The translations under genes were made by a program, and so were the position numbers. Below are positions 47,598-64,000 of a stretch of 64,000 nucleotides of DNA, in pieces. The notes beneath the pieces were generated by a model. It was given only the letters and a program-made list of their open reading frames with translations. It did no database searches and was not told where the DNA came from. This DNA comes from Basidiobolus meristosporus CBS 931.73 (lineage: Eukaryota; Basidiobolomycota; Basidiobolomycetes; Basidiobolales; Basidiobolaceae): assembly GCA_002104905.1 (NCBI GenBank), contig MCFE01000237.1, positions 55,707-119,706 on the forward strand, written 5' to 3'. Position 1 is the first letter of the stretch, and every line of letters begins with the position of its first letter.

Positions 47598-47643
47598 GGA
47601 GGGGGAGACAGTCACCAACAGGTGAAATCTTTATTTCAGTTGA
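47598..47643 (-). mobile_element. Family A LINE, 3'-end stub only
   Basis: About 46 bases identical in kind to the last bases of the family A LINE: GGGGGAGACAGTCACC, AACA, GGTGAAATCTTTATTTCAG. It stops inside the second conserved stem and is followed by two TTAGGG units. This is an extreme 5' truncation: reverse transcription started at the 3' hairpin and aborted. Confidence 0.75.
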
Positions 47644-47656
47644 GTTAGGGTTAGGG

Positions 47657-48270
47657 GAGGGAAAGTCACCAAGGTAGGTGAAATCTTTATTTGATTTCAG
47701 ACAAGTCTAACTACAAATAAAGAAGCCAGCTGGGAATAGAAGATTCCCAAAGTAAACACTAAATTGAATATGAATAAATCTAAGCTAAAGTTAAGGCAGT
47801 ATCCCAGAGTACACTGGAGTTCAGGTTCATGGGGGAGTGAAGTAGATAAGCTTGAGAGATATAATAATCTTTTAAGAAGTGGGTAACAGCAGGAGAAGGG
47901 GAGTTTCTGATAAGTGAAGTGAATCTTGAGAGCAAAGATTCCTCTAATGAGAAGGTCTTGTAAACTGGAGAATCAGGAAATTCTTTGAAGGCATGGTCAG
48001 TAGGTTCCCAGTAAAACTGGTCAGAGACATTTTGAGAGAACTCTTTAGCAATACTTTTGTCAAGTACTACCTCCAGAGTGTGATGGTTGATAAATCTCAT
48101 GTTAACAATCTTGGATAAATTGTTACCCTGTTGCTTGAGATACATCCTATGCTCAGATATAGGAATAAACTCCACATTGGCAAAGTAGCAGACAGCCCAG
48201 TCAGTAGCAGGAGGCAAATCAGAAGTGGCAGGAAACTTTCATTTAGTCTTGGGAAGAGCAGCAGGATGTC
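47657..48270 (-). mobile_element. Family B (ORF1-only) retroelement, 5'-truncated copy
   Basis: The left edge is TTAGGG joined to GAGGGAAAGTCACC, the family B 3' tail. Minus-strand ORF1 is open from 48217 to the stop at 47780 (PPATDWAVCYFANVEF to WDTALTLA). Just upstream, an AGA codon of intact copies has become TGA (48239-48241). The element is cut off at 48270, directly before the next TTAGGG. Truncated and mutated, it is a dead copy. Confidence 0.82.
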
Positions 48271-48276
48271 TTAGGG

Positions 48277-48877
48277 GGAGGGAAAGTCACCAAGTTGGTG
48301 AAATCTTTGTTTGAGTCAAGAACTAATCTAAGTACAAATAAAGAAGCCAATTAAGAAGTCTAGGACCTCTCTAATAAGTAGTCTAATTTATGTTTTGTTT
48401 CATCTCTAATGTTTGTTTCAATAAAGTAAAGCTCATCAGGGGTAAATATGAAATTCAAGGGTTTCGGGGGAAGTACAAATTGTAGATGTTTCTGATCAAT
48501 ATAATCCAAGACTGGAACCCAGCCTGGGATTAGGTGTAGTAGGAAAGGTGTGTGGACTTGTAGGTAGCTCTGCCACATAGATCTAAGATGGTCCTGAGCC
48601 AGTAGCCTTGGTTTCTCAGCTTTTTAAAGTTTTGAAGCAAGCTCTGTTACTACAGCAGAGCCAACCAGGGTGTGCCAGCAAGAAGATTTCAGGGAGGAGT
48701 AAGGGTGTAGGTGTTATAGTAAGGGCTAGGAAAAGGTTAGAAGAGCAGGGGGTCTGGGGGACGCAGTCCCCTAGAGAATAAAAAGCAGGGGGTTTGGGGG
48801 ATGCAATCTCCCATACTGCTCCCATACTCTTTAAATTCCCGTTGGATTACTTTTCTCTCATTCTTGGTTCTGGTCCC
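48277..48877 (-). mobile_element. Family E: diverged LINE, ORF2 C-terminal fragment
   Basis: The left edge is TTAGGG then GGAGGGAAAGTCACCAAGTTGGTGAAATC, the shared 3' module with its own loop. The minus-strand frame 48360-48626 reads KAEKPRLLAQDHLRSMWQSY then LQVHTPFLLHLIPGW and PPKPLNFIFTPDELYFIE. This parallels the family A ORF2 end (SEKPKLAY...LTDLWQQYLQQHTPF). It is clearly related but far from identical, so it belongs to another LINE lineage. A TAA at 48624-48626 breaks the frame. Upstream, 48680-48810 contains two copies of a G-rich hairpin unit (GGGGGACGCAGTCCCC). The right limit is set at the telomere-like motif at 48878 and is uncertain. Confidence 0.6.
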
Positions 48878-48919
48878 TTAGGGTTAGAATTCCTCCTCCT
48901 AACCCTTATCACCCTAACC
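48878..48919. other. Degenerate head-to-head telomere motif (possible fusion point)
   Basis: TTAGGGTTAG is followed, after a short AT/CT-rich link, by CCTAACCC and CCCTAACC. Forward and then reversed telomere units facing each other are what an end-to-end chromosome fusion leaves. The motif is short and has mutated links, so chance cannot be excluded. Confidence 0.45.
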
Positions 48920-49343
48920 ATAAATATTTTTACCCTACAATTGGCACATTGTCTGCTCATATAGTGGGCATGTCTGGGCCAATATTTGTCTCCCTATACT
49001 GTCCATATGCTCTGTATAAGTCTTGATGACTATTTAATTAATAAATTGTTATTTTTAATGTATATCTAATAATTAATGGGATTCATCCCAATCTGACCAC
49101 AATCCCATATTTTGATAAGCTTCAGGCACCATAAATTGCGCGGCCCTAATATGATAAAAAAATTCATGGCCAATACAAATTATCTGTAACCCAATTGCTT
49201 TTACCAAATATAAAGTGTATCCCAAAGTTCAATATATATTATGGCTATAATAGAAACTTTATTTGACACCATCACAACTACTACTTATGTTCTATGTGCA
49301 CATGTATCCCGCGGGAATTGTAAAACTTAGCCACGTGGTACAA
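48920..49343. other. AT-rich subtelomeric spacer
   Basis: About 420 AT-rich bases with no open frame or recognised repeat, between the telomere-like motif and the 154-bp satellite. Confidence 0.35.
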
Positions 49344-50040
49344 AAGTGCTTTTATTTTTCATCATGATAGTTTTACATGAGTTCCTAACGCACTTTGAAA
49401 GTACGCAGTAGCCATACCCCAACAGGTTTTAAGGATGTCCACTAGCTACGTCTACTTGTGTCTAGCGGGAGCCATCAATCATCAGCCGCGCAATACTGAA
49501 ATGCTTTTATTTTTCATCATGCTAGTTTTGTATGAATCCCTAACGCACTTTCATAGTGCGCGGTAACCATACCCCAACAGGTTTTAAGGATACCCACTTG
49601 CTACATTTACTTGTGTCTAGCGGGAGTCATCAATCATCAGCCGCGCGGTAATAAAGTGCTTTTATTTTTCATCATGATAGTTTTACATGAGTCCCTAACG
49701 CACTTTTATAGTGCGCGGTAACCATACCCCAACAGGTTTTAAGGATACCCACTTGCTACATTTACTTGTGTCTAGCGGGAGTTATCAATCATCAGCCGTG
49801 CGGTAATAAAGTGCTTTTATTTTTCATCATGATAGTTTTACATGAGTCCTTAATGCACTTTCATAGTGCGCGGTAACCATACCCCAACAGGTTTTAAGGA
49901 TACCCACTTGCTACGTTTACTTGTGTCTAGCGGGAGTTATCAATCATCAGCCGCGCGGTAATAAAGTGCTTTTATTTTTCATCATGATAGTTTTACATGA
50001 GTCCCTAATGCACTTTTATAGTACGCGGTAACCATACCCC
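49344..50040. repeat. Tandem satellite, about 154-bp unit, 4.5 copies
   Basis: The phrase GCTTTTATTTTTCATCATG recurs near 49348, 49504, 49658, 49812 and 49966, a period of about 154 bases. Each unit has a short palindrome (GCACTTTTATAGTGC or variants) followed by GCGGTAACCATACCCC and later a TCATCAATCATCAGCCG block. Units differ by scattered substitutions only. It has no coding capacity. It lies between the possible fusion point and the hypothetical genes. Confidence 0.85.
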
Positions 50041-50499
50041 CAGAAAGTAGTGTGGATGCTTACTTTAAACGCTCACTTGTGTATTGTATGGACTATCAAC
50101 AAACAGCCGTGTGGGAATGGAACATCATAGAAAAGCATTGCTTTGTTGTTAGCAAGTATTGATGCGCAAATAGTGGTACTATGTGAATTATTGAGTAACT
50201 ATTTACTCTAGTTGGTTCCAAGATATTCCTAGACAATATGCTCAAAATCAATATTAGCATCAATAGCTTGCTCTTTGATCACTAAACCACCGCACCCAAT
50301 ATGCGGTGGCCTTGGTTTTGTCTAGCTGTTGAGGAATGAAACCAGAGTACAGTCACAAGAGAGGCAAAAGTGAAATGTGGTGAAGTAAGTGTATATGAAA
50401 GTAATATAAATCTACAGGACAGAAGAGAACAACTAGTAGTTAAACAGCACTCACTGACACTCTACCAAGTAGAGCACCAACACAGACAATAAACAAGTC
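50041..50499. other. Spacer after the satellite
   Basis: AT-rich; the first 80 bases look like a diverged continuation of the satellite (ACCATACCCCCAG, TCAACAAACAGCCGTG). No gene recognised. Confidence 0.35.
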
Positions 50500-50835
50500 A
50501 TGAGGGGAAAGCTTAAGGACCGCTACTTGGGGATCAAGACCAAAAGAGGAAGCTGCCTCTACCATAGCAGTCCTTGCGCTCCAAAGGAAGACCAAGAGTC
50601 TATTATAGACAAAGATTGCGGCAAGAAGAGCAGTACAATTACCAGTTCTGGTAGTGGTACCTTTGGAAGTCCCAAATACCTGGAGAAAACTTGGAAAAAA
50701 TTGGCAGATGACTCAGTTGTCCTGAGGAGAAAACAAACCAATGCAATTGAGCAGTTCCAAAACAAACTTCAGCTTAGTCTTCTTTGCCTCACTATAAAGT
50801 ACTCCAAGTGGCTTATTTGGATTATAAGCGCATGA
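50500..50835 (+). CDS. Hypothetical short protein, doubtful
   Basis: An ATG-initiated frame of 111 codons, lysine-rich with a Ser/Gly stretch (STITSSGSGTFGSPKY). I do not recognise it, and no splice link extends it. It could be part of a decayed gene or a non-autonomous transposon. Confidence 0.2.
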   Translation: MRGKLKDRYLGIKTKRGSCLYHSSPCAPKEDQESIIDKDCGKKSSTITSSGSGTFGSPKYLEKTWKKLADDSVVLRRKQTNAIEQFQNKLQLSLLCLTIKYSKWLIWIISA

Positions 50836-51192
50836 AGGAGAATCAGGCAGAGACTGATAAATTAAGTGATAGTCAATTGCATCACTTCTTAGATCAGGTA
50901 GAGAAACAGTCGCACAGCCAAGAGATGGAACAAGAATTGACGATTACAGAAACCAGATAATTTTGCCAATGTAGTTTTGCATTTTAATAAAATAAAAGGG
51001 TGTTAATAAGAACAGAATAAAGTTAACTTATGTGTACATCAAATGATTCAAATACTGGCTAGATGGATGTTACGTAGGAGCAAGAAGCTCAGTAACCTCA
51101 AAGGAAAGATATGATGAATGGGCCACCAACATCATCCAAATGAGTATAAAAGTGGAGAAAGGAGACATAATCCTTCATAAAAAACAAGAAGC

Positions 51193-51966
51193 ATGGAAGC
51201 AGGCAGTAGCTGGGTAGATGCCAGGAGTGAAGGTAGAGTACAAAGACAGCAAGGAAGGGGACAAGGACGCGGAACTGGGCACGGAAGAGGAAGAGGGCAA
51301 GGAAGTGGCCAAATCCAAGAGGAGCGTGAAGGAGGTGTTGCAGCAAACGTGGATGATGCTGAGCAAGTTGCTGTAGTCACTACCAGGCGGCTGGTCAACC
51401 AAGTTTCCTAAGCATTGTCAGAGGTTTGACAAGAGCTTCCAGAATATAGGACAACATCGCACCATGAGATATTTCAACGTATGTGCCAGGAGATTAAACA
51501 GAGGAGGGGTGATATTGTAAAGCTAAATTGGGATATTGCTGGACTTCAAGCCCAGATTGATTTCAGTTTCCACCATTCTACTGAGGCATTAGTGGCACAA
51601 ATGGTGGAAAAGTTTGCCCGCATCAGGGCAAGCAATGAGCAGGGTGCATCTTCCGACCCAGGTGTACTTGCAAGCGACAGTATTGGAGGGGATACTACTT
51701 CCTCCCTCAAACCTACCACAAGCCAAGAGACAAGAGCAGAATCCTCCACAACAATGAGAATGGCCCCCACGCAGGTTGATATGGAAGTGTGCAAAGAAGA
51801 CGTGGAGAAGCAGAGTGGGGATACTATAGGCCAACCACAAACTGTAATGGAGGCGGAGAGACCAAGTCATATTGTCATCTTAAAAATACCACAGGTTGAT
51901 TCATTGCTATCACTTCCCCCATCATCACTATCTGTGCCCTCATCACCACCGCCATCCTCTGGCTAA
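51193..51966 (+). pseudogene. Hypothetical Gly/Arg/Gln-rich protein interrupted by two in-frame stops
   Basis: One frame runs from ATG at 51193 through an RGQGRGTGHGRGRGQGSG stretch to VNQVS. It meets TAA and then TGA within 30 bases (51409-51440). It continues in the same frame as QELPEYRTTSHHEIFQRM, a coiled-coil-like QRRGDIVKLNWDIAGLQAQI and a Ser/Pro-rich tail to 51966. The unchanged frame on both sides of the stops suggests a once single gene. No GT-AG intron of normal size removes both stops. The family is unknown; RGG-type stretches suggest RNA binding or a transposon gag, but this is a guess. Confidence 0.4.
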
Positions 51967-52157
51967 CTTGAGTAAATAAAGAATTTCCACCATCCCAAAT
52001 CAATGAATTGACAAGTAATAAGTTGAACTGATAAGATTGACAATTTACAGACTAATATATGTAAAGTATGTAGTACTTAAGAGCTTTCAAGTTGTGGTGT
52101 ATTATCAAGTATTCACCGTCACATAAATCACGCAGCAGTTGTTGTATCCCTATCCCA

Positions 52158-52511
52158 ATGGCATTAGAAGCCAGCAGTTACAAGGAGCATCGGAAAAATT
52201 TTGGCGTTTACCTGGCAACAGTGGCAGGTGTAACAAAACACAGCTATTGCTTGATGACCATTACCCCGTCTATGAGATACTTGCTATTATATGGAGGGTA
52301 TTCTGCTGAGCACTTTCAAGACAGCAAAATATCCCCACCTTATGATGAGCGTATAGCTGAAGAAACATCCGGCCGTGGAATACTCTATGAGCCCAGCTCA
52401 AAGGTTCAAATGATTCACCTTGCAGATCTACACAGTGATGAAGACATCACAGTGACAGTTCTCCCGACTCCAGACAACATATCTGTTGTAAAAATTCGTA
52501 TTTCCACCTAA
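52158..52511 (+). CDS. Hypothetical protein, 117 aa
   Basis: An ATG frame starting MALEASSYKEHRKNFGVYLA and ending SVVKIRIST, with a mixed, protein-like composition and alternating hydrophobic residues near the end (ITVTVLPTPDNISVVKIRI). No known domain. It may be a lineage-specific subtelomeric gene; coding status is uncertain. Confidence 0.3.
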   Translation: MALEASSYKEHRKNFGVYLATVAGVTKHSYCLMTITPSMRYLLLYGGYSAEHFQDSKISPPYDERIAEETSGRGILYEPSSKVQMIHLADLHSDEDITVTVLPTPDNISVVKIRIST

Positions 52512-52549
52512 ATATTCACCTGACTTAGTCACTTAGATCATTACCTTCA

Positions 52550-53416
52550 AATCCTAGAAAATACTGACCAAATTCCTTGTCGGGATTTACTTAGAATATT
52601 TTCACCAAAATACCAGGTACCCAGAACATGAAAATTCTCAAAGTTGTCCAAACAGCCCCAAACTTTGCACACATGTTCTTGGGACCTTCCTTAACCTATT
52701 CTACGTGTTTGTAATGCCAAGACCAGGTAAAAGTATAAATACTACTTTTACATTCAATAAATCATTAAGTGAAAACCACATAATCTACTTGTTCTCCCAA
52801 TCACTTCCAATATCTCCAAGACTCTTACAACAGGTTATGAGCCCCAAGCTGTCACTCTCTGCAATGTCTACTACTGCTATTACTGGAACTTTTCCCTCTG
52901 CTGAAAAGTTGGATGGATCTAACTACCAAGTGTGGAAGGTGAAGATGAAGATGCTGCTACAAGAAAGAGGCCTTTGGGATATTGTCATGGGAGAAGAATG
53001 CCCTCCTAAAAACGTGGGAGAGGAAGCCTTGAAGTACCAGAAGAAAGAACAAAGTGCCTTTAACTGCATTTGCCTTAATGTCAAGGACAAATTGCTAATT
53101 CAATGCTCAAGAGCAAAAACGGCAAAGAATGCCTGGAAGGCATTAGAAGACACCTACCAGTCATGTTCAGCTGCCAAGAAAATGTATCTGAGAAGAAAAT
53201 TCTTTACTACAAAGATGCTGCCAGGAGAAGAAATGAAAAATCTAATTAATAGAATTACCCTGCTGGTAGATGGGATGGAATCTGTGGGCGTACCAACTAC
53301 TGATGAGGATGTGATAGTTACCATCCTGAATAGCCTGACAGACGAGTTTCAGGGCCTTGTATCAGCCTTAGAGTCCAGAACTCAAGATTTGACCTTAAAT
53401 AATGTGTACAGAAGGG
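52550..53416 (+). mobile_element. Ty1/copia-type LTR retrotransposon, 5' part only, cut off inside gag
   Basis: Gag starts at 52864 (MSTTAITGTFPSAEKLDGSNYQVW) and has the copia gag (UBN2/DUF4219) pattern: LDGSNYQVWKVKMKMLL, LWDIVMG, AWKALEDTYQ, LINRITLLVDGM and LTDEFQGLVSALE. Just before it, GGTTATGAGCCCC (52834 on) resembles the copia primer-binding site, which in Drosophila copia is complementary to an internal part of initiator tRNA-Met. The preceding 280 bases, with TATAAATA near 52735, should be the 5' LTR; its left end is not certain. After VYRR the coding sequence turns directly into GGGTTAGGG and SINE. The pol region and 3' LTR are missing. The left limit is approximate. Confidence 0.75.
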
Positions 53417-53422
53417 TTAGGG
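53417..53422 (+). repeat. Interstitial telomere unit healing the copia break
   Basis: GGGTTAGGG follows the copia gag reading frame without any target-site feature. The next element starts directly after it. This is the signature of a broken end capped by telomere addition. Confidence 0.65.
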
Positions 53423-53501
53423 GGAGGAAAGTCACCAAGTGGTGAAATCTTTATTTACTTATGACAAGTATTTAAAGAAGCCAAGTTAATCTGAAGTAAT
53501 T

Positions 53502-53620
53502 CCTAGAAAGCTAGGTCTGAGAGATATCTTCCTGGTAAGCCAGGTCTGAGAGTTGAGAAGCTGAGTGGTACTATATTTCCTAGTTAGCTAGGTCTGAGAG
53601 AGGTTTCCTGGAAAGCCAGG
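53502..53620 (-). repeat. Four tandem covarying hairpins in the SINE body
   Basis: Plus-strand stems: CCTAG-AAAG-CTAGG, CCTGG-TAAG-CCAGG, CCTAG-TTAG-CTAGG and CCTGG-AAAG-CCAGG, each followed by (T/C)CTGAGA. The fourth stem base alternates A and G and its partner alternates T and C, so pairing is kept by double changes. All three SINE copies have the same set. Confidence 0.8.
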
Positions 53621-53878
53621 CCTGAGAAGTGAGAATCTGAGTATATCTGAGGTGAGTTGTACTGATTTGCGGTAGCTTGTTTGTGGCCAGAATGGCCAGT
53701 AGACTGGGGGAACTGAGGGGTATTTCTGGGCGATCACTGGCCAAATTTACTAGGCAAATTTGACCAATTAGCATTTCAAGGATTTCAGCCAATCAGAGCC
53801 TTTACTTTGCCCGATGGTTGATCAAGCCATCTCCCAATGAGCACACATCAATTTATTGATCAAATTTTGTTGGATCCA

Positions 53879-53933
53879 GGATTTGAACCCACAACCATGG
53901 GTATGGAAGGGTTAGGGATAACCACAAGGCTAA
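53879..53933 (-). promoter_or_regulatory. Internal RNA polymerase III promoter (A and B boxes) of SINE copy 1
   Basis: B box GGTTCAAATCC at 53879-53889 matches the GGTTCRANTCC consensus exactly. The A box TTAGCCTTGTGGTTA at 53919-53933 is a looser match. The same pair occurs in copy 2 (57890-57944) and copy 3 (62719-62773). Confidence 0.75.
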
Positions 53934-53949
53934 GTGTTCTTGGTTAGGG

Positions 53950-54908
53950 GGATGATCATCACCAAAGGGTGAAATCTTTATTTAAATAATCAATAAAGAA
54001 GCCAAGTTTGAATATGAATATCTGAGATGCAGGAAGCCTACAAGATAAACTTGGACTTTGCTGTATCCCAAATATCCTCAATATCAAAGTCTAGAGGAGA
54101 GTGTAGCAAGACTGCTTGTTCACTGTAGTATTTCTTGAGGAAGTTTGTGACTTGAAGGGAAGGAGAGTTTTTCAACAAGCTGGTAAATCTTTTGAGAAGT
54201 TCTTTTTCCAGAGAGAATGGCACAAAGAGTGGAATGTCCAAGTGATGTCTGAATATATGCTCTGAGAGCTCCCAATCCAGCATATTTTTGACTTCTTCTG
54301 TAAAATCTTCACCAATATCTTTGTCAAGAATAACTTCCAAGAGATCCCTGGCAATGTACTGAATGTTAATAATCTTAGGCATATGAATACCTAGGTCCTT
54401 GAGGTAGTTTCTTTGTTCTGATATTGGGAGATATCCTGCATTTCTGAAATAGCAAACAGCCCAGTTGGCAGTAGGAGGAGTATCAGGGCTGACAGGGAAT
54501 CTTCTTCTGGCTTTAGAGTGCACCGGCTTAGGAGACTGTCTTGATGGAAGGGCAGCTGGTTTTGGATGAGCTTGAAGTGCTTGAGAGTAGGTCTGAGTAC
54601 AAGTAGTAGAAGTTCCTGGTTGCTGAGAATTTTCAGATTGACTGGATGAAGAGCTAATTGAGGGGTTGCAAGGTAAGGAAGAAGCTGAAAGAGAAGTGGA
54701 GAGGGCTGGGTGAAGTTCAGAAAGAGTTTTGAAAAGAATTTGGATCTGATATTTCAACATTGAGTTTTCAGCTTCAAGAAGAGAAACTCTTTGTTCAAGG
54801 TAAGAAGTCTGTAAAGAGTGAAAGTTGGGTAAAGACATGGAAGTAATAAATAAGAAGAATGGAGTAGTTGGGGTGGGAGGGTGGGAAAATAGGTAAGAAG
54901 AAAAGAGA
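53950..54908 (-). mobile_element. Family C (ORF1-only) retroelement, copy 1, intact ORF
   Basis: A single TTAGGG precedes the 3' tail GGATGATCATCACC. ORF1 occupies 54038-54838 on the minus strand. The element continues past the start codon through a purine-rich 5' leader and ends AGAAGAAAAGAGAG at 54908, where the next family C copy starts with no TTAGGG unit between them. No reverse transcriptase frame exists, so it must move in trans. Confidence 0.85.
54038..54838 (-). CDS. ORF1 (gag-like) protein of family C element, copy 1
   Basis: 266 residues. The N-terminus is a leucine-zipper-like coiled coil (YLEQRVSLLEAENSMLKYQI). Then comes a Ser/Gln/Pro-rich linker with a basic patch (KARRRFPVSPDTPP), and a compact C-terminal domain from about residue 122 (NWAVCYFRNAGYLPISEQRN, YLKDLGIHMPKIINIQYI, LLEVILDKDI, TSLLKNSPSLQVTNFLKKYY). 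This layout resembles LINE ORF1 proteins with coiled-coil trimerisation and an RRM/CTD-like RNA-binding part; no CCHC zinc knuckle is present. It is homologous to family B ORF1 and more distantly to family A ORF1. The RNA-binding role is inferred. Confidence 0.8.
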   Translation of the reverse strand: MSLPNFHSLQTSYLEQRVSLLEAENSMLKYQIQILFKTLSELHPALSTSLSASSLPCNPSISSSSSQSENSQQPGTSTTCTQTYSQALQAHPKPAALPSRQSPKPVHSKARRRFPVSPDTPPTANWAVCYFRNAGYLPISEQRNYLKDLGIHMPKIINIQYIARDLLEVILDKDIGEDFTEEVKNMLDWELSEHIFRHHLDIPLFVPFSLEKELLKRFTSLLKNSPSLQVTNFLKKYYSEQAVLLHSPLDFDIEDIWDTAKSKFIL

Positions 54909-55979: not shown

Positions 55980-56003
55980 TTAGGGTTAGGGTTAGGGTTA
56001 GGG
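55980..56003 (+). repeat. Interstitial telomere tract, four TTAGGG units
   Basis: Four perfect TTAGGG units between the 5' end of family C copy 2 and the 3' tail of family B copy 2. It is an old chromosome terminus buried by a later element. Confidence 0.9.
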
Positions 56004-56126
56004 GAGGGAAAGTCACCAAGGTAGGTGAAATCTTTATTTGAATGCAGACAAGTCTAACTACAAATAAAGAAGCCAGCTGGGAATAGAAGATTCCCAAAGT
56101 AAACACTAAGTTGAATATGAATAAAT

Positions 56127-56855
56127 CTAAGCTAAAGTTAAGGCAGTATCCCAGAGTACACTGGAGTTCAGGTTCATGGGGGAGTGAAGTAGATAAGCTT
56201 GAGATATATAATAATCTTTGAGGAAGTGGGTAACAGCAGGTGAAGGGGAGTTTTTGATAAGTGAAGTGAATCTTGAGAGCAGAGATTCCTCTAATGAGAA
56301 GGACTTGTAAACTGGAGAATCAGGAAACTCTTTAAAGGCATGGTCAGTAGGTTCCCAGTAAAACTGGTCAGAGACATTTTGAGAGAACTCTTTAGCAATA
56401 CTTTTGTCAAGTACTACCTCCAGAGTGTGATTGTTGATAAATCTCATGTTAACAATCTTGGATAAATTGTAACCTTGTTGCTTGAGATACATCCTATGCT
56501 CAGATATAGGAATGAACTCCACATTGGCAAAGTAGCAGACAGCCCAGTCAGTAGCAGGAGGCAAATCAGAAGTGGCAGGAAACTTTCTTTTAGTCTTGGG
56601 AGGAGCAGCAGGATGTCTTGAGGAAGCAGGAAAAGGCTTTTTGACAGCTTCAGAGTAGGAAGAGTGAGCAGGAGCAGATGATTCTTGGGGAGTCTTGTTG
56701 ACAGGAAGAGTTGGCACAGGGACAATAGATTCTTGCAGATCAGAGAAGGCAGAAAACAGCTTTTGAACTTGTTTCTTGAGTAAAGCATTTTCAGCTTCAA
56801 CAAGTGCAAGCCTTTCCTCAAGGAAGGAAATCTGAAGGGAATGGAGTGAAGGCAT
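56127..56855 (-). CDS. ORF1 (gag-like) protein of family B element, copy 2
   Basis: 242 residues from the first ATG (MPSLHSLQISFLEERLALVE); the open frame extends further upstream without an ATG. An N-terminal coiled coil (LEERLALVEAENALLKKQVQ) and a Pro/Ser-rich linker are followed by a basic patch (PPKTKRKFPATSDLPPATDW). The C-terminal domain reads AVCYFANVEFIPISEHRMYL, IVNMRFINNHTLEVVLDKSI, FSLEESLLSRFTSLI and VTHFLKDYYISQAYLLHSP. It aligns along its length with family C ORF1 and weakly with family A ORF1. No zinc knuckle. Confidence 0.8.
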   Translation of the reverse strand: MPSLHSLQISFLEERLALVEAENALLKKQVQKLFSAFSDLQESIVPVPTLPVNKTPQESSAPAHSSYSEAVKKPFPASSRHPAAPPKTKRKFPATSDLPPATDWAVCYFANVEFIPISEHRMYLKQQGYNLSKIVNMRFINNHTLEVVLDKSIAKEFSQNVSDQFYWEPTDHAFKEFPDSPVYKSFSLEESLLSRFTSLIKNSPSPAVTHFLKDYYISQAYLLHSPMNLNSSVLWDTALTLA

Positions 56856-56895
56856 AAGAAATAAGAAGAAGAGGGTAAGATGGGGTGGGTGGGTG

Positions 56896-57427
56896 GGAAA
56901 ATTAGCAGGGAGAAGAGAAGGAAGGAGCAAAAATTCCAGAAGTCAGAATTTATAGATGGATGGACAAGGGTAGATGGATGGATTATTCCTGGGTTAGGAA
57001 AATTAGCAGGGAGAAGAGAAGGAAGGAGCAAAAATTCCAGAAGTCAGAATTTATAGATGGATGGACAAGGGTAGATGGATGGATTATTCCTGGGTTAGGA
57101 AAATTAGCAGGGAGAAGAGAAGGAAGGAGCAAAAATTCCAGAAGTCAGAATTTATAGATGGATGGACAAGGGTAGATGGATGGATTATTCCTGGGTTAGG
57201 AAAATTAGCAGGGAGAAGAGAAGGAAGGAGCAAAAATTCCAGAAGTCAGAATTTATAGATGGATGGACAAGGGTAGATGGATGGATTATTCCTGGGTTAG
57301 GAAAATTAGCAGGGAGAAGAGAAGGAAGGAGCAAAAATTCCAGAAGTCAGAATTTATAGATGGATGGACAAGGGTAGATGGATGGATTATTCCTGGGTTA
57401 GGAAAATTAGCAGGGAGAAGAGAAGGG
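56896..57427 (-). repeat. 101-bp tandem monomers forming the 5' end of family B copy 2
   Basis: TATAGATGGATGGACAAGGG recurs near 56951, 57052, 57153, 57254 and 57355, spaced exactly 101 bases with virtually no differences. Each unit carries CCTGGGTTAGGAAAA, a telomere-like GGGTTAGG. Family B copy 3 has only about one unit at the same place, so the number varies. By analogy with mouse L1 these may be promoter monomers. Confidence 0.9.
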
Positions 57428-57433
57428 TTAGGG
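57428..57433 (+). repeat. Single interstitial TTAGGG between B copy 2 and SINE copy 2
   Basis: One TTAGGG unit separates the 5' end of the older element from the 3' tail of the newer one, the minimum seen at most junctions here. Confidence 0.8.
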
Positions 57434-57954
57434 GCAGGAAAGTCACCAAGTGGTGAAATCTTTATTTACTTATGACAAGTATCTAAAGAAGCCAAGTTAA
57501 TCTGAAGTTATTCCTAGAAAGCTAGGTCTGAGAGATATCTTCCTGGTAAGCCAGGTCTGAGAGTTGAGAAGCTGAGTGGTACTATATTTCCTAGTTAGCT
57601 AGGTCTGAGAGAGGTTTCCTGGAAAGCCAGGCCTGAGAAGTGAGAATCTGAATATATCTGAGCTAAGTTATACTGGTTTGCGGTAGCTGAATAGTGGCCG
57701 GAATGGCCAGTAGACTGGGGGAACTGAGATGAATTTCTGGGCGATCACTGGCCAAATTTACTAGGCAAATCTGGCCAAGTAGCATTTCAAGGATTTCAGC
57801 CAATCAGAGCCTTTACTTTGCCCGATGGTTGATCAAGCCATCTCCCAATGAGCACACATCAATTTATTAATCAAATTTTGCTGGATCCAGGATTTGAACC
57901 CACAACCATGGGTATGGAAGGGTTAGGGATAACCACAAGGCTAAGTGTTCTTGG
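57434..57954 (-). mobile_element. Family D tRNA-derived SINE, copy 2
   Basis: Same length, tRNA-like head, four hairpins and LINE-like tail as copy 1, differing by scattered substitutions (for example TTATTCC for TAATTCC near 57509). It runs from TTAGGG to TTAGGG, so it is full length. B box at 57890-57900 and A box at 57930-57944 are intact. Confidence 0.85.
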
Positions 57955-57960
57955 TTAGGG

Positions 57961-58352
57961 GGGAGACAGTCACCAACAGGTGAAATCTTTATTTCAGTTG
58001 AAACAAAGAAGCCAGCGCTACTGTTGTAGCTTTGATACAAGAGTGTATAGCTGAGGGGAATTTGTAGGTAAGTTAATAAGAAGTGATGATAGTTCTTCAG
58101 TGCTCAAGACACTGTTCAGTGGGAAGGGGGGTAGCAAGAGAGGTAAGAATGACTTGTGAACAACATTAATGAGGGGAATGTGATAAGGATTGATATTCAT
58201 CATAAAGGGAGTGTGCTGCTGCAGATATTGCTGCCAAAGGTCTGTCAAGTACTTCAGGTAGGCCAGCTTGGGTTTTTCTGACTGCAGAATATAGTGAGCA
58301 AACTTCTTGACTTCAGGATCTCCAAGTATAGTTCTCCAGCAGGAGTCAGGTG
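57961..58352 (-). mobile_element. Family A LINE, 5'-truncated copy (ORF2 C-terminus)
   Basis: TTAGGG, then the family A 3' tail, then ORF2 open from the cut edge to the stop at 58018 (LTDLWQQYLQQHTPFMMNIN to LVSKLQQ). The copy is nearly identical to the long family A copy beside it and stops abruptly at 58352 before the next TTAGGG. A typical aborted reverse-transcription product. Confidence 0.87.
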
Positions 58353-58416
58353 TTAGGGGGGGAGACAGTCACCAACAGGTGAAATCTTTATTTCAGTTGA
58401 AACAAAGAAGCCAGTG

Positions 58417-61185
58417 CTACTGTTGTAGCTTTGATACAAGAGTGTGTAGCTGAGGGGAATTTGTAGGTAAGTTAATAAGAAGTGATGATAGTTCTTCAGT
58501 GCTCAAGACACTGTTCAGTGGGAAGGGGGGTAGCAAGAGAGGTAAGAATGACTTGTGAACAACATTAATGAGGGGAATGTGATAAGGGTTGATATTCATC
58601 ATAAAGGGAGTGTGCTGCTGCAGATATTGCTGCCAAAGGTCTGTCAAGTACTTCAGGTAGGCCAGCTTGGGTTTTTCTGACTGCAGAATATAGTGAGCAA
58701 ACTTCTTGACTTCAGGATCTCCAAGTATAGTTCTCCAGCAGGAGCCAGGTGTAGTGTGGTGTGTTCTCTTCCAGGCCTTAATCAGTGGGTTGTTGCAGTT
58801 GTGAAGTCTGAGGTATAATCTGGTTCTAAGGTAGAGAAGTCTGATCTTATAGGGCATAAACCCAAAAGCACCAAGAATAGCATGTCTGTAGGGGCATTCA
58901 GGCAAATGAGGCACCAAGGAGGTAATGCACCATACTGCAAACTTGTCAAGCTTAGTGCAGTCTCTAGAAGTAAGAGAGAGAAGTGGTAAGCCAAATTCCA
59001 GGACAGGGAAGACAAACTGCTTGAGTAGAAGGAGGCAGCTGGGAGCTGAAGTTGTAGGAGCAGTAACAGCCAGTAGCTTGTGGAGTGCCTGTCTTGCCAG
59101 GATAATTCTCTTCTTCAGGTGTGCTCCAGAGTCTAGTCCAGTAGGAAGGAAAGGAAAGCCAAGATATGTAGCAGAAACCTGAGCAGGTAGAGTGGAGTTC
59201 TCCAAGTTGATGGGAGAGCCCAAAGGTACTGTCTTTGCAATGGAAAGCTGGAGATTATTCTTCTGCAGATACTGGTGGATGGTCTGGGAGTCTTGTTGCA
59301 CATTGGAGGAGGATATTCTGATGTCATCAGCAAAGAGAGTAACCAGGCAGTCAGCTGAGAGTCTTGGGAAATCATTCAGGAAGATGGCAAACAGTATAGG
59401 ACCAAGCACAGAGCCTTGAACCACTCCATTAGGAACTGAGAACACAGCTGATTGCTCACTTGGGTGCAGAATTCTTGCTTGTGGATCCAGAAACAGAGAC
59501 CTGACAAGGAGGGTGAGAGAGGTACTGGAGAAGCATTGCAACTTGGACCAAAGCAGATTTCTGTCAACTGAATCAAAGGCCTTAGTAATATCAAACAGAA
59601 CAGAGGGATACTTGCACTGGAGAGAGTGATCTTGGCTAAGTATGACTGCATATTCCAAGGAGAGGCCAGGAACAAAGCCAAACTGTGCAGGATGAAACTT
59701 GAGGGAGTCAGAGTAGAGCTCCTGAGCAAGCAGAAGCTCAAATACCTTTCTGCAGGTGGGCAGCAGATATATTGGCCTGTAGGAGCTAGGATCCAGGTGC
59801 TTTCCTTTACCCTTGTACAGTGGCAGAACATTTGCAAAGGACCATTCCTCAGGAGTAGAAAGCTGGGCTGAGCATTGCTGAAACAGTGGAAGCAGAAGTG
59901 CAGACATGGCCTTGGTACTAGTCTTCAGAAGCTCATAGGAGATTGTGTCCACACCTGGAGCAGTAGAGTTGGGAAGCCTCTTGAGCACATTATGGATTCT
60001 CCTTTGATCAAGTGCAAGTGGGATGGGCAGAGTCTTGAAGTCAGGATGAAAGCCAGGAGTTGAGTACTGCTTTGTAGAGAAGAAGATGTTAGCCAGCTGT
60101 TCTGTTGAAGGTAACTTCCTGGAAGAGGGCCTCATTGCCCTGTAGAGTCTTGATACTGTTCTTGTTATAGAGTTGGAAGATTGCAGAGGCAAGGAACTCA
60201 TAATATGATCCCAGAGCTGAGTATGCAGAGTGTGGTGAATTGCCTTGGAGTGGTGTATTGCTGTCAGGAGGAGTTTCTCTGTTTTTGGGTTAGGGAAGCT
60301 CAGGTAGCTTTGTTGCAGGGCTGAAACAATGGATTCCCATTTTCTTGAGGTAACAGCAGTAGTCTTGCATGGCAGTGAGAGGGAGGCAGACACCAGAATC
60401 AGATGCTTCACAAAGAGCCAGGCAAAGTTGAGATCATCTGGCAGAGAAAGTAGCAAACTGGCAAGCTTCAAGTAGTTCCCAAAGTCTTTCTTCTGATTCT
60501 TGGTAGCTTTGTGGGTGAGCACAGTAAGTTTTGGCAGCTTCTTCTTCACAACTGGTTGCATAGAAAGGGACCAGGCTGGGTGGTCAGAGGCTCTCAAGGA
60601 TCCTAGCTCAGCTCCAGAGAATTGCTTAACTTCATTCACAAAGTAGAGGGCAGCAGCAGAAGGGCAGATCCAGTCAACACATCTTTTCTCAGATTGAGCA
60701 CCTAGTGCTAGCAGGTGGCTTTCTCTCAGGAAGTTCAGTAGGAATGTAGACCTTGGCTTCATTCTTGCAGTCAGAGTAGTCTTGTTCTCAGGATGGGGAA
60801 TGTTGAGATCTCCAAGCAAGATAACAGGTGTTGATATAGATTGTTGGTATTGCTGAACCTTCTGGCATATTACTTGCACTTCCTGAAGGGCTAGACTTGG
60901 AGGCAGATAGCAGAGCACCAGACTGATAGTTGGCAACTGGAGAGCAGCACAGTAAGGGGAGTAAAGAGGAACACAGAGCTGAGGAGTATTGATGGTAGAA
61001 GAGATGAAGCAGATAGAGGAGGTATTCTTTGTTCTAGGAGTAGAAAAGCAATATAGATTAGTCAAAAGTATAGAGGGTAGCTGGACATCAATCAAACACA
61101 GGAGGGAAAATCTTGAAAGAAGTCTCTCTAGAGTTGGTCTTGATGGCTGTATGCTGTTGCAGTTAAGCAACAGAACTTCAGGTAG
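58417..61185 (-). CDS. ORF2: APE-type endonuclease and reverse transcriptase of family A LINE
   Basis: About 920 codons open from directly after the ORF1 UGA. Counting from the leucine at 61170, the endonuclease occupies residues 1-200: LNCNSI, CYLPP, GDLNIPH (120-126), VDWICP and the catalytic SDHPAW (195-200). The place where LQET(K)L normally supplies the metal-binding Glu reads LIDVQL, a possible Glu-to-Asp change. The RT domain has APGVDTISYELLK (404), SYRPIYLLPT (463), QFGFVPG, LFDITKAFDSVDR (525-537), NGVVQGSVLGP and LFADDI (612-617, catalytic Asp pair). The C-terminal third lacks a visible CCHC knuckle or RNase H. The first in-frame AUG is at residue 137, inside the endonuclease, so separate initiation is unlikely. 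Confidence 0.9.
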   Translation of the reverse strand, partial: LPEVLLLNCNSIQPSRPTLERLLSRFSLLCLIDVQLPSILLTNLYCFSTPRTKNTSSICFISSTINTPQLCVPLYSPYCAALQLPTISLVLCYLPPSLALQEVQVICQKVQQYQQSISTPVILLGDLNIPHPENKTTLTARMKPRSTFLLNFLRESHLLALGAQSEKRCVDWICPSAAALYFVNEVKQFSGAELGSLRASDHPAWSLSMQPVVKKKLPKLTVLTHKATKNQKKDFGNYLKLASLLLSLPDDLNFAWLFVKHLILVSASLSLPCKTTAVTSRKWESIVSALQQSYLSFPNPKTEKLLLTAIHHSKAIHHTLHTQLWDHIMSSLPLQSSNSITRTVSRLYRAMRPSSRKLPSTEQLANIFFSTKQYSTPGFHPDFKTLPIPLALDQRRIHNVLKRLPNSTAPGVDTISYELLKTSTKAMSALLLPLFQQCSAQLSTPEEWSFANVLPLYKGKGKHLDPSSYRPIYLLPTCRKVFELLLAQELYSDSLKFHPAQFGFVPGLSLEYAVILSQDHSLQCKYPSVLFDITKAFDSVDRNLLWSKLQCFSSTSLTLLVRSLFLDPQARILHPSEQSAVFSVPNGVVQGSVLGPILFAIFLNDFPRLSADCLVTLFADDIRISSSNVQQDSQTIHQYLQKNNLQLSIAKTVPLGSPINLENSTLPAQVSATYLGFPFLPTGLDSGAHLKKRIILARQALHKLLAVTAPTTSAPSCLLLLKQFVFPVLEFGLPLLSLTSRDCTKLDKFAVWCITSLVPHLPECPYRHAILGAFGFMPYKIRLLYLRTRLYLRLHNCNNPLIKAWKRTHHTTPGSCWRTILGDPEVKKFAHYILQSEKPKLAYLKYLTDLWQQYLQQHTPFMMNINPYHIPLINVVHKSFLPLLLPPFPLNSVLSTEELSSLLINLPTNSPQLHTLVSKLQQ

Positions 61186-62243
61186 TCAGGCAGAGGTTGT
61201 AGCTTCTTCAGAGGCAGCATTAACAATGTGACCTGCAGAGTCCCAGAGCTCTTCAAATGGTGCATCACTTAAGTCAGCAAGGAGGGAAATGGCATGGTTC
61301 TTGAGGAAGTATGCCACATCATAGGAGGGGGCTTGTCTCTTGATGGCAGCAAAGAAAGACAGAATGGCAACATGGGCTGGAGGCTTGTTGAACAGTAGAG
61401 AGTCAGAGGATTCAGATTCTTCAGGCACTATCTTGAAGTCAGTTTTCAGCCAGTTAAGGTTCTTCTCCACAAAGGCAACAAATGGGTCAGCAATGTTTTG
61501 GTCTAGGATAACCTCCAGAATCTTCCCTTTTCTCCAGGCCAGGTTGACAATTCTTGAGAGCTGAATATTGCATGCCTTGAGTGCTTTCCTGATGTTGGAA
61601 ATGGGGGTCCAGGGAACTTGCTTCAAGTACACCACAGTCCAGGTAGAAGCTGGTGGTAGGTTTGCTGGGGGCTTGTAAGTCCTTCTGTGTTGCAATGGAG
61701 CTGCAGTAGTCAGATTGGAGTCCACATTCTCAGTAGAAGGTTTTCTTGATGTGTCTTGCTGAATAGTACTGGAGCTGGATGTGCTGATAATTCTTGCCAG
61801 AACCTTGCCTGCATAAGTCTGAGGTATAGCTGAGGTGACTGTAGAGGTGGTGGCAGCTGGTGCAGGTGGAGAGGCAGAGACTGAAGCAGGAACTGAGGTC
61901 ACCTGGGAGAAGGCAGTAGAAGCAGGTTTTCTGGGAGGAACAGAGTTCACTATCCAGTTGTTCTGTAAAACACTGGAGTAGCTTTTCTGTGGAACAGGAT
62001 CTTGCTCTTGAACAGGAACAGAAGCAGGAGGCTGGGGCTGAGCAGAAGTGGTAAGGCAGTGGCACTCCAAGGAAGCTTTTTGCAAGGCATCTCTGGCAGT
62101 TTTCAGGGCAGTATTGGCTTCATTCTTGAGCTTCTTGCATTGGGCATCCAGTCTCTTGTTTTCAATAGCCAGGGCAGTATTGGCAGCCTCTAAATCAGCA
62201 ATTCTCTTCTCAATTGCAAGGAATCTCTGAAGAAATGCATCAG
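61186..62243 (-). CDS. ORF1 of family A LINE, 5'-truncated
   Basis: Open for about 352 codons from the truncation edge to UGA at 61186-61188. It starts in a coiled coil (LAIEKRIADLEAANTALAIE, KKLKNEANTALKTA). A long Ser/Pro/Ala-rich linker with a basic patch (QHRRTYKPPANLPPASTW) follows. The C-terminal domain (TVVYLKQVPWTPISNIRKAL, SRIVNLAWRKGKILEVILDQ, VAYFLKNHAISLL) is homologous to ORF1 of families B and C. No in-frame ATG lies near the left edge, so the true start was lost. The stop is followed by CUA in the ORF2 frame. Confidence 0.82.
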
Positions 62244-62260
62244 TAGGGTTAGGGTTAGGG
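62244..62260 (+). repeat. Interstitial telomere tract, about 2.7 units
   Basis: TAGGG then two TTAGGG units between the 5' edge of the long LINE and the next SINE tail. Confidence 0.85.
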
Positions 62261-62783
62261 GGGGAGGAAAGTCACCAAGTGGTGAAATCTTTATTTACTT
62301 ATGACAAGTATCTAAAGAAGCCAAGTTAATCTGAAGTAATTCCTAGAAAGCTAGGTCTGAGAGATATCTTCCTGGTAAGCCAGGTCTGAGAGTTGAGAAG
62401 CTGAGTGGTACTATATTTCCTAGTTAGCTAGGTCTGAGAGAGGTTTCCTGGAAAGCCAGGCCTGAGAAGTGAGAATCTGAATATATCTGAGCTAAGTTAT
62501 ACTGGTTTGCGGTAGCTGAATTGTGGCCGGAATGGCCAGTAGACTGGGGGAACTGAGAGGAATTTCTGGGCGATCACTGGCCAAATTTACTAGGCAAATC
62601 TGGCCAATTAGCATTTCAAGGATTTCAGCCAATCAGAGCCTTTACTTTGCCCGATGGTTGATCAAGCCATCTCCCAATGAGCACACATCAATTTATTAAT
62701 CAAATTTTGCTGGATCCAGGATTTGAACCCACAACCATGGGTATGGAAGGGTTAGGGATAACCACAAGGCTAAGTGTTCTTGG
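62261..62783 (-). mobile_element. Family D tRNA-derived SINE, copy 3
   Basis: Third full-length copy with the same head, four hairpins and tail (GGGAGGAAAGTCACCAAGTGG). B box 62719-62729, A box 62759-62773. Followed by a variant unit TTGGG and then TTAGGG. Confidence 0.85.
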
Positions 62784-62794
62784 TTGGGTTAGGG

Positions 62795-63811
62795 GAGGGA
62801 AAGTCACCAAGGCAGGTGAAATCTTTATTTGAATGCAGACAAGTCTAACTACAAATAAAGAAGCCAGCTGGGAATAGAAGATTCCCAAAGTAAACACTAA
62901 GTTGAATATGAATAAATCTAAGCTAAAGTTAAGGCAGTATCCCAGAGTACACTGGAGTTCAGGTTCATGGGGGAGTGAAGTAGATAAGCTTGAGAGATAT
63001 AATAATCTTTCAAGAAGTGGGTAACAGCAGGTGAAGGGGAGTTTTTGATAAGTGAAGTGAATCTTGAGAGCAGAGATTCCTCTAATGAGAAGGTCTTGTA
63101 AACTGGAGAATCAGGAAACTCTTTAAAGGCATGGTCAGTAGGCTCCCAGTAAAACTGGTCAGAGACATTTTGAGAGAACTCTTTAGCAATACTTTTGTCA
63201 AGTACTACCTCCAGAGTGTGATGGTTGATAAATCTCATGTTAACAATCTTGGATAAATTGTAACCTTGTTGCTTGAGATACATCCTATGCTCAGATATAG
63301 GAATAAACTCCACATTGGCAAAGTAGCAGACAGCCCAGTCAGTAGCAGGAGGCAAATCAGAAGTAGCAGGAAACTTTCTTTTAGTCTTGGGAGGAGCAGC
63401 AGGATTTCTTGAGGAAGCAGGAACAGGCTTTTTGACAGCTTCAGAGTAGGAAGAGTGAGCAGGAGCAGATGAATCTTGGGAAGTCTTGTTGACAGGAACA
63501 GCTGGCAGAGAGACAATAGATTCTTGCAGATCAGAGAAGGCAGAAAACAGCTTTTGAACTTGTTTCTTGAGTAAAGCATTTTCAGCTTCAGCAAGTGCAA
63601 GCCTTTCCTCAAGGAAGGAAATCTGAAGGGAATGGAGTGAAGGCATAAGAAATAAGAAGAAGAGGGTAGGATAGGGTGGGTGGGTGGGAATATTAGCAGG
63701 GAGAAGAGAAGGAAGGAGCAAAAATTCCAGAAGTCAGAATTTATAGATGGATGGACAAGGGTAGATGGATGGATTATTCCTGGGTTAGGAAAATTAGCAG
63801 GGAGAAGAGAA
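62795..63811 (-). mobile_element. Family B (ORF1-only) retroelement, copy 3, terminal element of the chromosome
   Basis: Outermost element: its 3' tail follows TTAGGG (62789-62794), ORF1 is intact (62918-63646), and the 5' leader has about one 101-base monomer ending GGAGAAGAGAA before the telomere. Being last before the telomere it should be among the youngest insertions. It shares the 5' edge of copy 2, so both copies end at the same 5' position and are probably full length. Confidence 0.87.
62918..63646 (-). CDS. ORF1 (gag-like) protein of family B element, copy 3
   Basis: 242 residues from the ATG at 63646, differing from copy 2 at few positions (for example SLPAVPVNKTSQD in place of PVPTLPVNKTPQE, and FINHHTLEV for FINNHTLEV). 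The coiled coil and the AVCYFANVEFIPISE domain are unchanged. It has an intact frame and sits next to the telomere, so it may be expressed if the 5' monomer is a promoter. Confidence 0.82.
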   Translation of the reverse strand: MPSLHSLQISFLEERLALAEAENALLKKQVQKLFSAFSDLQESIVSLPAVPVNKTSQDSSAPAHSSYSEAVKKPVPASSRNPAAPPKTKRKFPATSDLPPATDWAVCYFANVEFIPISEHRMYLKQQGYNLSKIVNMRFINHHTLEVVLDKSIAKEFSQNVSDQFYWEPTDHAFKEFPDSPVYKTFSLEESLLSRFTSLIKNSPSPAVTHFLKDYYISQAYLLHSPMNLNSSVLWDTALTLA

Positions 63812-64000
63812 GGGTTAGGGTTAGGGTTAGGGTTAGGGTTAGGGTTAGGGTTAGGGTTAGGGTTAGGGTTAGGGTTAGGGTTAGGGTTAGGGTTAGGGTT
63901 AGGGTTAGGGTTAGGGTTAGGGTTAGGGTTAGGGTTAGGGTTAGGGTTAGGGTTAGGGTTAGGGTTAGGGTTAGGGTTAGGGTTAGGGTTAGGGTTAGGG
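63812..64000 (+). repeat. Terminal telomere, (TTAGGG)31
   Basis: GGG then 31 perfect TTAGGG units to the end of the window, G-rich strand running 3' outward. The array is perfectly regular and at the edge, so this is the chromosome terminus, cut at an unknown point by assembly or read length. Confidence 0.97.

What the first reader, a model, noticed from the sequence alone, without database searches (positions are those of the whole stretch)
47598..64000. A telomere-building retroelement system on a TTAGGG chromosome end: one LINE, two gag-only families and a SINE
Twelve insertions of five families occupy most of the last 16 kb. All are on the minus strand, nearly all have the 3' end directly against TTAGGG on the inner side, and most are separated by one to four TTAGGG units. 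This is what results if the 3' G-strand of an eroded telomere primes reverse transcription and telomerase then re-caps the new end. Known parallels are TRAS/SART (insects), MoTeR (Magnaporthe), GilM/GilT (Giardia) and HeT-A/TART/TAHRE (Drosophila). The mixture of an APE-type LINE with gag-only partners and a tRNA SINE at one fungal telomere is, to my knowledge, not a standard described system.
Basis: partly seen in the sequence, partly recalled or inferred. Interest (0 to 1): 0.93.

Follow-up and report, generated by a model that had tools for sequence, protein, structure and literature searches.

The report
Retroelement consortium at fungal chromosome ends
In a fungus that is probably a Basidiobolus, the chromosome ends looked at here are built largely of five kinds of self-copying elements that share one tail and are stacked, all pointing the same way, on tiny stubs of telomere repeat, as if broken ends were patched by reverse transcription before telomerase recapped them.

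Summary
The last 16 kb of the window hold 12 same-strand insertions of five families. Genome-wide the shared 3' tail has 1507 matches; about 81-85% abut TTAGG on the inner side and none abut the reversed repeat. All 43 sampled copies on contigs of 40 kb or more lie within 9.2 kb of the right contig end. One correction: the fifth family is a second LINE. So there are two LINEs (the first with an APE-type endonuclease fold), two gag-only families under purifying selection (pN/pS 0.26 and 0.32) and a SINE with a Pol III-type B box.

New here: elements sit on telomeric seeds of median 8 nt, against roughly 100-240 nt at capped ends. Of 41 junctions on 5'-truncated elements, none shows the element resuming beyond the next insertion, and seeds share microhomology with truncated ends. 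A TERT domain is present.

Best reading: end-primed reverse transcription, one tail serving all families, telomerase re-seeding. Priming, trans-mobilisation and independence from nicking are inferred. It works like HeT-A/TART and MoTeR arrays but is a member of neither.

The parts
47601..47643 (-). LINE-1, 3'-terminal fragment (43 nt), first element of the inner array, joined to other DNA at CTACCTTAAGGGA
47653..48272 (-). gag-only family A, 5'-truncated (prototype position 403), on a seed GTTAGGGTTAGGG
48275..48700 (-).
48701..53415 (.). block between the two arrays: foreign repeat, 155-bp satellite (49,329-50,040), copia-type gag reading frame (52,714-53,445) cut at AGAAGGG|TTAGGG; not part of the element system
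53422..53944 (-). SINE, full length
53946..54910 (-). gag-only family B (ORF 54,038-54,838, 266 aa)
54908..55975 (-). gag-only family B, second copy (ORF 55,000-55,800), about 92% identical; joined to the previous copy without a TTAGGG seed
55976..56003 (+). longest telomeric tract between elements in the window (4.7 units)
56000..57426 (-). gag-only family A (ORF 56,127-56,855, 242 aa) with 5.3 tandem 101-bp 5' monomers (56,896-57,426)
57433..57955 (-). SINE, full length
57958..58354 (-). LINE-1, 397-nt 3' fragment
58357..62246 (-). LINE-1, 5'-truncated inside ORF1 (prototype position 784 of 4672)
58420..61185 (-). LINE-1 ORF2: APE-type endonuclease plus reverse transcriptase, open for 922 codons
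61186..61188 (-). in-frame TGA between ORF1 and ORF2, followed by CTA
61189..62244 (-). LINE-1 ORF1, start codon missing because of the 5' truncation
62262..62784 (-). SINE, full length; B box GGTTCAAATCC, A-box-like TAGCCTTGTGG
62791..63812 (-). gag-only family A, full length (ORF 62,918-63,646, 242 aa)
63811..64000 (+). terminal (TTAGGG)n, 31.7 units to the end of the window

Best explanation
This is a consortium of non-LTR retroelements that live at chromosome ends of a fungus, probably a Basidiobolus: two LINEs, two ORF1-derived gag-only families and one SINE, all ending in the same short 3' tail (two hairpins, then a C-run). Mechanism proposed: (1) an end that is broken, eroded or left by incomplete reverse transcription receives a few telomeric nucleotides, ending in GGG; (2) the C-run at the RNA 3' end of any family pairs with this GGG, and the LINE reverse transcriptase, recognising the shared tail in cis or in trans, copies the RNA outward from the G-strand 3' end; (3) copying often stops early, so elements are 5'-truncated; (4) the new end is seeded again by telomerase and the cycle repeats, or telomerase builds a full cap. 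Shown: shared tail, single polarity, terminal location of sampled copies, very short seeds, microhomology at truncation points, no resumption of truncated elements, selection on the gag-only ORFs, APE fold, TERT-like domain in the genome. Inferred: the priming substrate, trans-mobilisation, the role of telomerase in making the seeds.
Against: LINE-1 keeps an APE-type endonuclease fold with the GDLN and SDH motifs, so insertion by nicking is possible. In Magnaporthe, internal tracts longer than three repeats are prone to break, so long seeds could have existed and been lost. Recombination also spreads arrays: two contigs share the same family A truncation point (q822, C22 and C25), and LINE copies are nearly identical. 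20 of 98 junctions have less than a full TTAGGG, and three of nine fetched contig ends (C3, C14, C27) have no telomere cap. The hairpins are almost invariant, so covariation adds little (1 of 15 pairs). No RNA, RT assay or strain comparison is available. The genome searches score only the best 40 candidates or exact tails, so diverged internal relics would be missed.
Confidence: 0.7

Rival explanations
1. TRAS/SART-like or MoTeR-like target-primed insertion: the LINE endonuclease nicks the G-strand inside a normal telomere, the element inserts there, and the outer tract is later lost by breakage, leaving short stubs.
For: APE fold present; closest folds are R1Bm, APE1 and TRAS1 endonucleases, tied within 1 Z. 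Breakage of internal tracts >3 repeats is reported for MoTeR arrays.
Against: 88 of 93 seeds are at most 12 nt, while SART1 needs three repeats (abstract) and FoTeR 3' tracts have about 3-8 repeats. Seeds start in different phases directly on truncated elements or other DNA. The residue aligned with the Glu of 7 of 7 other LINE endonucleases is Asp in the window LINE and in the two relatives that cover it.
Confidence: 0.3
2. Few insertions, then spread of whole arrays between chromosome ends by break-induced replication and unequal exchange.
For: LINE-1 copies shown as 100% identical (rounded) over 601 bp in 40 of 40 scored; same family A truncation point in C22 and C25; a non-telomeric block lies between two arrays in the window. 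BIR is described for MoTeR arrays.
Against: 44 LINE-1 segments have 44 different start points, at least 7 of them set by locus edges and a few belonging to split copies. Junctions occur on many different non-element sequences (32 of 100, some of them locus edges or diverged elements). My attempt to count distinct junctions gave 64 clusters of 100, but its one cluster of 35 lumps SINE tails on unlike flanks, so it is no measure.
Confidence: 0.15
3. Template jumping: one reverse transcriptase copies several RNAs in a row, and the TTAGGG seeds come from read-through telomeric sequence at RNA 3' ends.
For: Head-to-tail strings of truncated elements with microhomology at the joins.
Against: Read-through RNAs should often carry inner flanking DNA along with the tail, but 98 of 110 segments end at the tail. 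Seeds also occur directly on non-element DNA.
Confidence: 0.08
4. Assembly artefact: contigs broken at repeats and turned to one orientation.
For: (TTAGGG)3 matches are almost only forward (8002 against 103), and none of 20 sampled left ends (first 200 nt) has a telomere array or tail. Many contigs are about read length, so 1507 may count some ends twice.
Against: Orientation is measured against the adjacent TTAGGG, not the contig: there are 94 reverse-strand matches with the correct polarity to their own TTAGG, for 121 reverse tails. Junctions differ between contigs.
Confidence: 0.03

Closest known systems
HeT-A / TART / TAHRE (Drosophila telomeres)
   Same: End-restricted head-to-tail arrays, 3' ends inward, 5' truncation frequent; gag-only elements that must borrow an RT (the Drosophila side is recalled knowledge; two searches gave listings only).
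   Different: Here telomerase repeats and a TERT domain remain; tails are C-runs, not poly(A); a SINE takes part; the host is a fungus.
MoTeR1/MoTeR2 (Magnaporthe) and FoTeR (Fusarium)
   Same: Fungal, TTAGGG ends, 5' end towards the telomere, a partner sharing the 3' sequence (MoTeR2), short internal telomeres, seed microhomology at truncations (passages of PMC7367193).
   Different: MoTeR/FoTeR have a restriction-like endonuclease and fall in a CRE/SLACS group (sections 16, 18, 19 of PMC12857005); here an APE-type endonuclease, ORF1-derived gag-only partners and a SINE. FoTeR 3' tracts are about 3-8 repeats; here about one.
TRAS / SART (insects)
   Same: APE-type endonuclease LINEs at telomere repeats; TRAS1 endonuclease is among the closest folds.
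   Different: SART1 needs at least three repeats and a long poly(A) tail (PMC7265360, abstract and outline only); no gag-only or SINE partner that I know of (recalled).
LINE/SINE pairs with a shared 3' tail (stringent-type recognition, recalled)
   Same: SINE and LINE share a structured 3' tail.
   Different: Five families share it and the sampled copies are at chromosome ends.
Zepp (Chlorella), GilM/GilT (Giardia), Tx1_ACar (Anolis)
   Same: Named in print as telomere-associated retrotransposons (passage of PMC10088271).
   Different: Not compared by sequence here.

Membership tests
Non-LTR retrotransposon with APE-type endonuclease (LINE-1 here) | RVT_1 reverse transcriptase | tested here: met
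   PF00078, 87.9 bits, E 1e-24
Non-LTR retrotransposon with APE-type endonuclease (LINE-1 here) | APE/EEP endonuclease fold at the N-terminus of ORF2 | tested here: met
TRAS/SART | telomere-repeat target | tested here: met
TRAS/SART | insertion in tracts of at least three repeats (SART1) | tested here: not met
   88 of 93 seeds are at most 12 nt; requirement from PMC7265360 abstract
TRAS/SART | poly(A) 3' end | tested here: not met
   all five families end in a C-run
TRAS/SART | R1-clade RT | not tested
   no labelled clade references were available; five relatives are 48-80% identical and unnamed, the next best are 24-32% identical
MoTeR/FoTeR | restriction-like endonuclease C-terminal to RT | tested here: not met
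   no such Pfam match; APE endonuclease N-terminal instead. The C-terminal part was not modelled on its own
MoTeR/FoTeR | 5' end towards the chromosome end, short internal telomeres | tested here: met
   compared with passages of PMC7367193
HeT-A/TART-type telomere | gag-only element family plus RT-bearing partner, confined to ends | tested here: met
   confinement is shown for the sampled copies only; LINE-2 ORF1 was not recovered, so its relation to A and B is open
HeT-A/TART-type telomere | retroelements replace telomerase repeats | tested here: not met
   the window end and 6 of 9 contig ends carry roughly 100-240 nt of TTAGGG; TERT RBD found
tRNA-type SINE | Pol III A and B boxes | tested here: inconclusive
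   B box matches a recalled consensus, A-box-like with one mismatch; no tRNA by ARAGORN or Rfam
tRNA-type SINE | 3' tail shared with a LINE | tested here: met
L1-ORF1p-like gag (coiled coil, RRM, C-terminal domain) | coiled coil then RRM fold | tested here: inconclusive

The most novel reading that the evidence does not exclude
The consortium acts as a second, RT-based chromosome-end repair system next to telomerase: retroelement RNA with a C-run tail is copied directly onto freshly broken ends that carry about one telomeric repeat, without need of its own nick. Gag-only and SINE passengers are kept because they lengthen ends. It would be a fungal, independently evolved counterpart of the Drosophila HeT-A/TART partnership, caught while telomerase is still present.
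Probability: 0.4. Interest if true: 0.92.

Novelty: new variant of a known kind. Interest (0 to 1): 0.78.

Why it matters
It gives a dense natural record of how a retroelement community extends chromosome ends while telomerase is still there: about 1500 tails in one assembly, with readable junctions. It makes two open questions testable: how a HeT-A-like division of labour (RT provider plus gag-only element) arises, and whether short or broken telomeres are themselves the landing site. The listings of my paper searches showed no description of an APE-type LINE with gag-only and SINE partners at fungal telomeres; that is no proof of absence in print, and repeat databases were not searched.
Full report
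What is there. The window is C466:55,707-119,706 of an assembly of 89.0 Mb and 1311 contigs; whether C466 goes on beyond the window was not seen. The last 16 kb hold 12 insertions, all on the minus strand, ending in 31.7 units of TTAGGG. The families are LINE-1 (three pieces, one of 3.9 kb), A (three), SINE (three), B (two) and one 3' fragment of a second LINE. Between 48,701 and 53,415 lies a block of ordinary DNA: a 155-bp satellite and a copia-type gag frame (PF14223, 140.5 bits) cut at AGAAGGG|TTAGGG, which I read as a broken and healed end (inference).

Organism. The family A protein has one relative at E <= 0.01 in the protein search, a partial protein of Basidiobolus ranarum, 50% identical over 67%. 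Assembly size fits B. meristosporus CBS 931.73 from memory; that name comes from no call.

Genome-wide distribution. The tail pattern GTCACCA-gap-GGTGAAATCTTTATTT has 1386 forward and 121 reverse matches, and none for the pattern read backwards. Family B tails with another start to this motif are not counted. TTAGG lies within 14 nt on the inner side in 1276 matches; 4 of the 100 listed rows are a second match to the same tail, so the true share is about 81-85%. The opposite polarity, CCTAA, gives 0. I obtained contig lengths for 49 copies: 37 of the 40 LINE-1 places (the other three lie in the window, L036 and L044), 5 of 40 A and 7 of 40 B places. The 43 on contigs of 40 kb or more all lie within 9,213 nt of the right end, a chance of about 10^-44; the other 6 are on shorter contigs. 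These places are the best 40 scored of 217, 230 and 116 candidates, so diverged copies elsewhere are not excluded. The 1507 tails may include redundant read-length contigs.

Contig orientation. Matches to (TTAGGG)3 are 8002 forward to 103 reverse, and the first 200 nt of 20 sampled contigs hold no telomere array or tail (one has a single TTAGGG). I take this as an assembler effect; it does not touch the polarity result, which is measured against the adjacent repeat.

Junctions. In 19 sources I found 98 tails (two counted twice in overlapping loci): LINE-1 41, SINE 32, A 12, LINE-2 7, B 6. A telomeric match of 4 nt or more precedes 93 of them: median 8 nt, 88 at most 12 nt, the longest 28 nt; 78 of 98 have at least TTAGGG. 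At full-length SINE 5' ends two of the eight nucleotides (GG) belong to the SINE. Caps are roughly 100-240 nt by a scan that stops at irregular units, at the window end and at 6 of 9 telomere-ward contig ends fetched; C3, C14 and C27 have none. The G-run length varies (LINE-1 5-10), as expected if GGG anneals at different places on a C-run (inference).

Additions at ends, not insertions into DNA. Of 66 element-element junctions, 41 follow a 5'-truncated inner element; in 0 of 41 does that element resume beyond the next one. Three copies in the same loci are split by other DNA and do resume, with overlaps of 5, 6 and 4 nt (L038, L042, L045), so the test can see internal insertions. The 44 LINE-1 segments have 44 different start points, at least 7 set by locus edges and a few belonging to split copies. 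In a separate set of 41 junctions, 29 could be measured: seed and truncated end share 1.90 nt on average against 0.76 in simulation (P 5e-5). Seed microhomology is also reported for truncated MoTeRs, 17 of 23 (passage of PMC7367193).

The shared tail. All five families end GGCTTCTTT...AAAGATTTCACC-loop-GGTGA...C-run. Each folds into two hairpins, z -4.3 (LINE-1), -3.1 (A), -2.7 (B), -1.6 (LINE-2), -2.4 (SINE). Invariance rather than covariation is seen.

LINE-1. The longest copy (L044) has ORF1 of 502 codons, a TGA, then ORF2 in the same frame; ORF2 of that copy is interrupted after 141 codons, while the window copy is open for 922. ORF2 carries an RT (best PDB match human L1 ORF2p, E 3.6e-12) and an APE-type endonuclease by fold. 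In the window LINE and the two relatives that cover the site, Asp stands where 7 of 7 other LINEs have Glu (alignment); that this is the metal-binding Glu is recalled. GDLN and SDH are kept. The endonuclease begins within a few residues of the TGA, with no ATG between. The stop is followed by CTA in 36 of 36 short stretches that cover it (a 37th ends at TGAC) and in six further places in the long loci; as these copies are nearly identical they are not independent. UGA CUA is a known readthrough context in fungi (passages of PMC4207609). The relative P0001 has a predicted start there instead.

LINE-2. Distal of the fifth tail lies an RT frame 52-57% identical to LINE-1 and 67-71% to the unnamed protein P0005. 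The copies read are interrupted by stops, frame changes or truncation. Its ORF1 was not recovered.

Gag-only families. A (242 aa) and B (266 aa) are 43% identical and related to LINE-1 ORF1 (A: 35%, E 6e-22). B: 10 copies, 45 pairs, pooled pN/pS 0.26; the two window copies dN 0.041, dS 0.238; 2 of 10 have a stop, one of these also a lost start. A: 4 copies, pooled 0.32, none broken. Selection acted while they spread as gag-only elements, unless A or B is fed by the unseen ORF1 of LINE-2. The model shows a long helix and an RRM-like fold, with weak structural matches.

SINE. 523 nt, 22 full-length hits in the loci, one of them counted twice; B box by recalled consensus, not recognised as a tRNA.

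5' ends. A has 101-bp monomers, 5.3 in one window copy; LINE-1 has 100-bp monomers, two in L044, and B one unit like A's. The two full A copies of the window carry different numbers of monomers but end at the same point of the unit (GAGAAGGG), which suggests a transcription start in the monomer (inference).

Telomerase. A TERT RNA-binding domain gives two adjacent matches at C880 (40.5 and 34.7 bits, cut-off 25; the weaker one reads through one TAG, perhaps an intron).

Comparison and verdict. It works like MoTeR arrays and like HeT-A/TART, but each membership test fails at one defining point: endonuclease type for MoTeR/FoTeR, retained telomerase repeats for Drosophila. SART1's three-repeat requirement (abstract) and poly(A) tail are not met. 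I rate it a new variant of a known kind, with the end-priming step likely but unproven; breakage of long internal tracts is the strongest alternative for the short seeds.

Noticed in passing
window 61,186-61,188 (minus) and short loci L060-L096: ORF1 and ORF2 of LINE-1 are separated by one in-frame TGA followed by CTA, a known leaky context, with no ATG before the endonuclease: ORF2 may be made by stop-codon readthrough.
   Followed up: partly
window 60,490-61,185 (minus), alignment A4: Asp replaces the conserved Glu of other LINE endonucleases in this group of LINEs, while GDLN and SDH remain; nicking activity may be weakened or altered.
   Followed up: partly
window 56,896-57,426; L044 7,696-7,905: Tandem 5' monomers of 101 bp (A) and 100 bp (LINE-1), like promoter monomers; the A unit contains GGGTTAGG.
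   Followed up: partly
window 48,701-53,415: A block of ordinary repeats and a copia-type gag truncated at a telomere seed lies between two telomeric arrays, as if an end was exchanged or captured.
   Followed up: partly
L038 540-5,222; L042 6,919-7,614; L045 6,326-6,677 (L042 in telomere orientation, i.e. reverse complement): Other DNA, probably transposable elements, has inserted into the telomeric elements with 4-6 nt overlaps.
   Followed up: partly
genome G000: Telomere repeats are almost confined to the forward strand of contigs; 20 left ends sampled have no array, probably an assembler effect that hides many chromosome ends.
   Followed up: partly
L044, about 7,600-7,700 (LINE-1 5' UTR): The LINE-1 5' UTR carries its own TTAGGGTTAGGG stretch near the ORF1 start; role unknown.
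   Followed up: no
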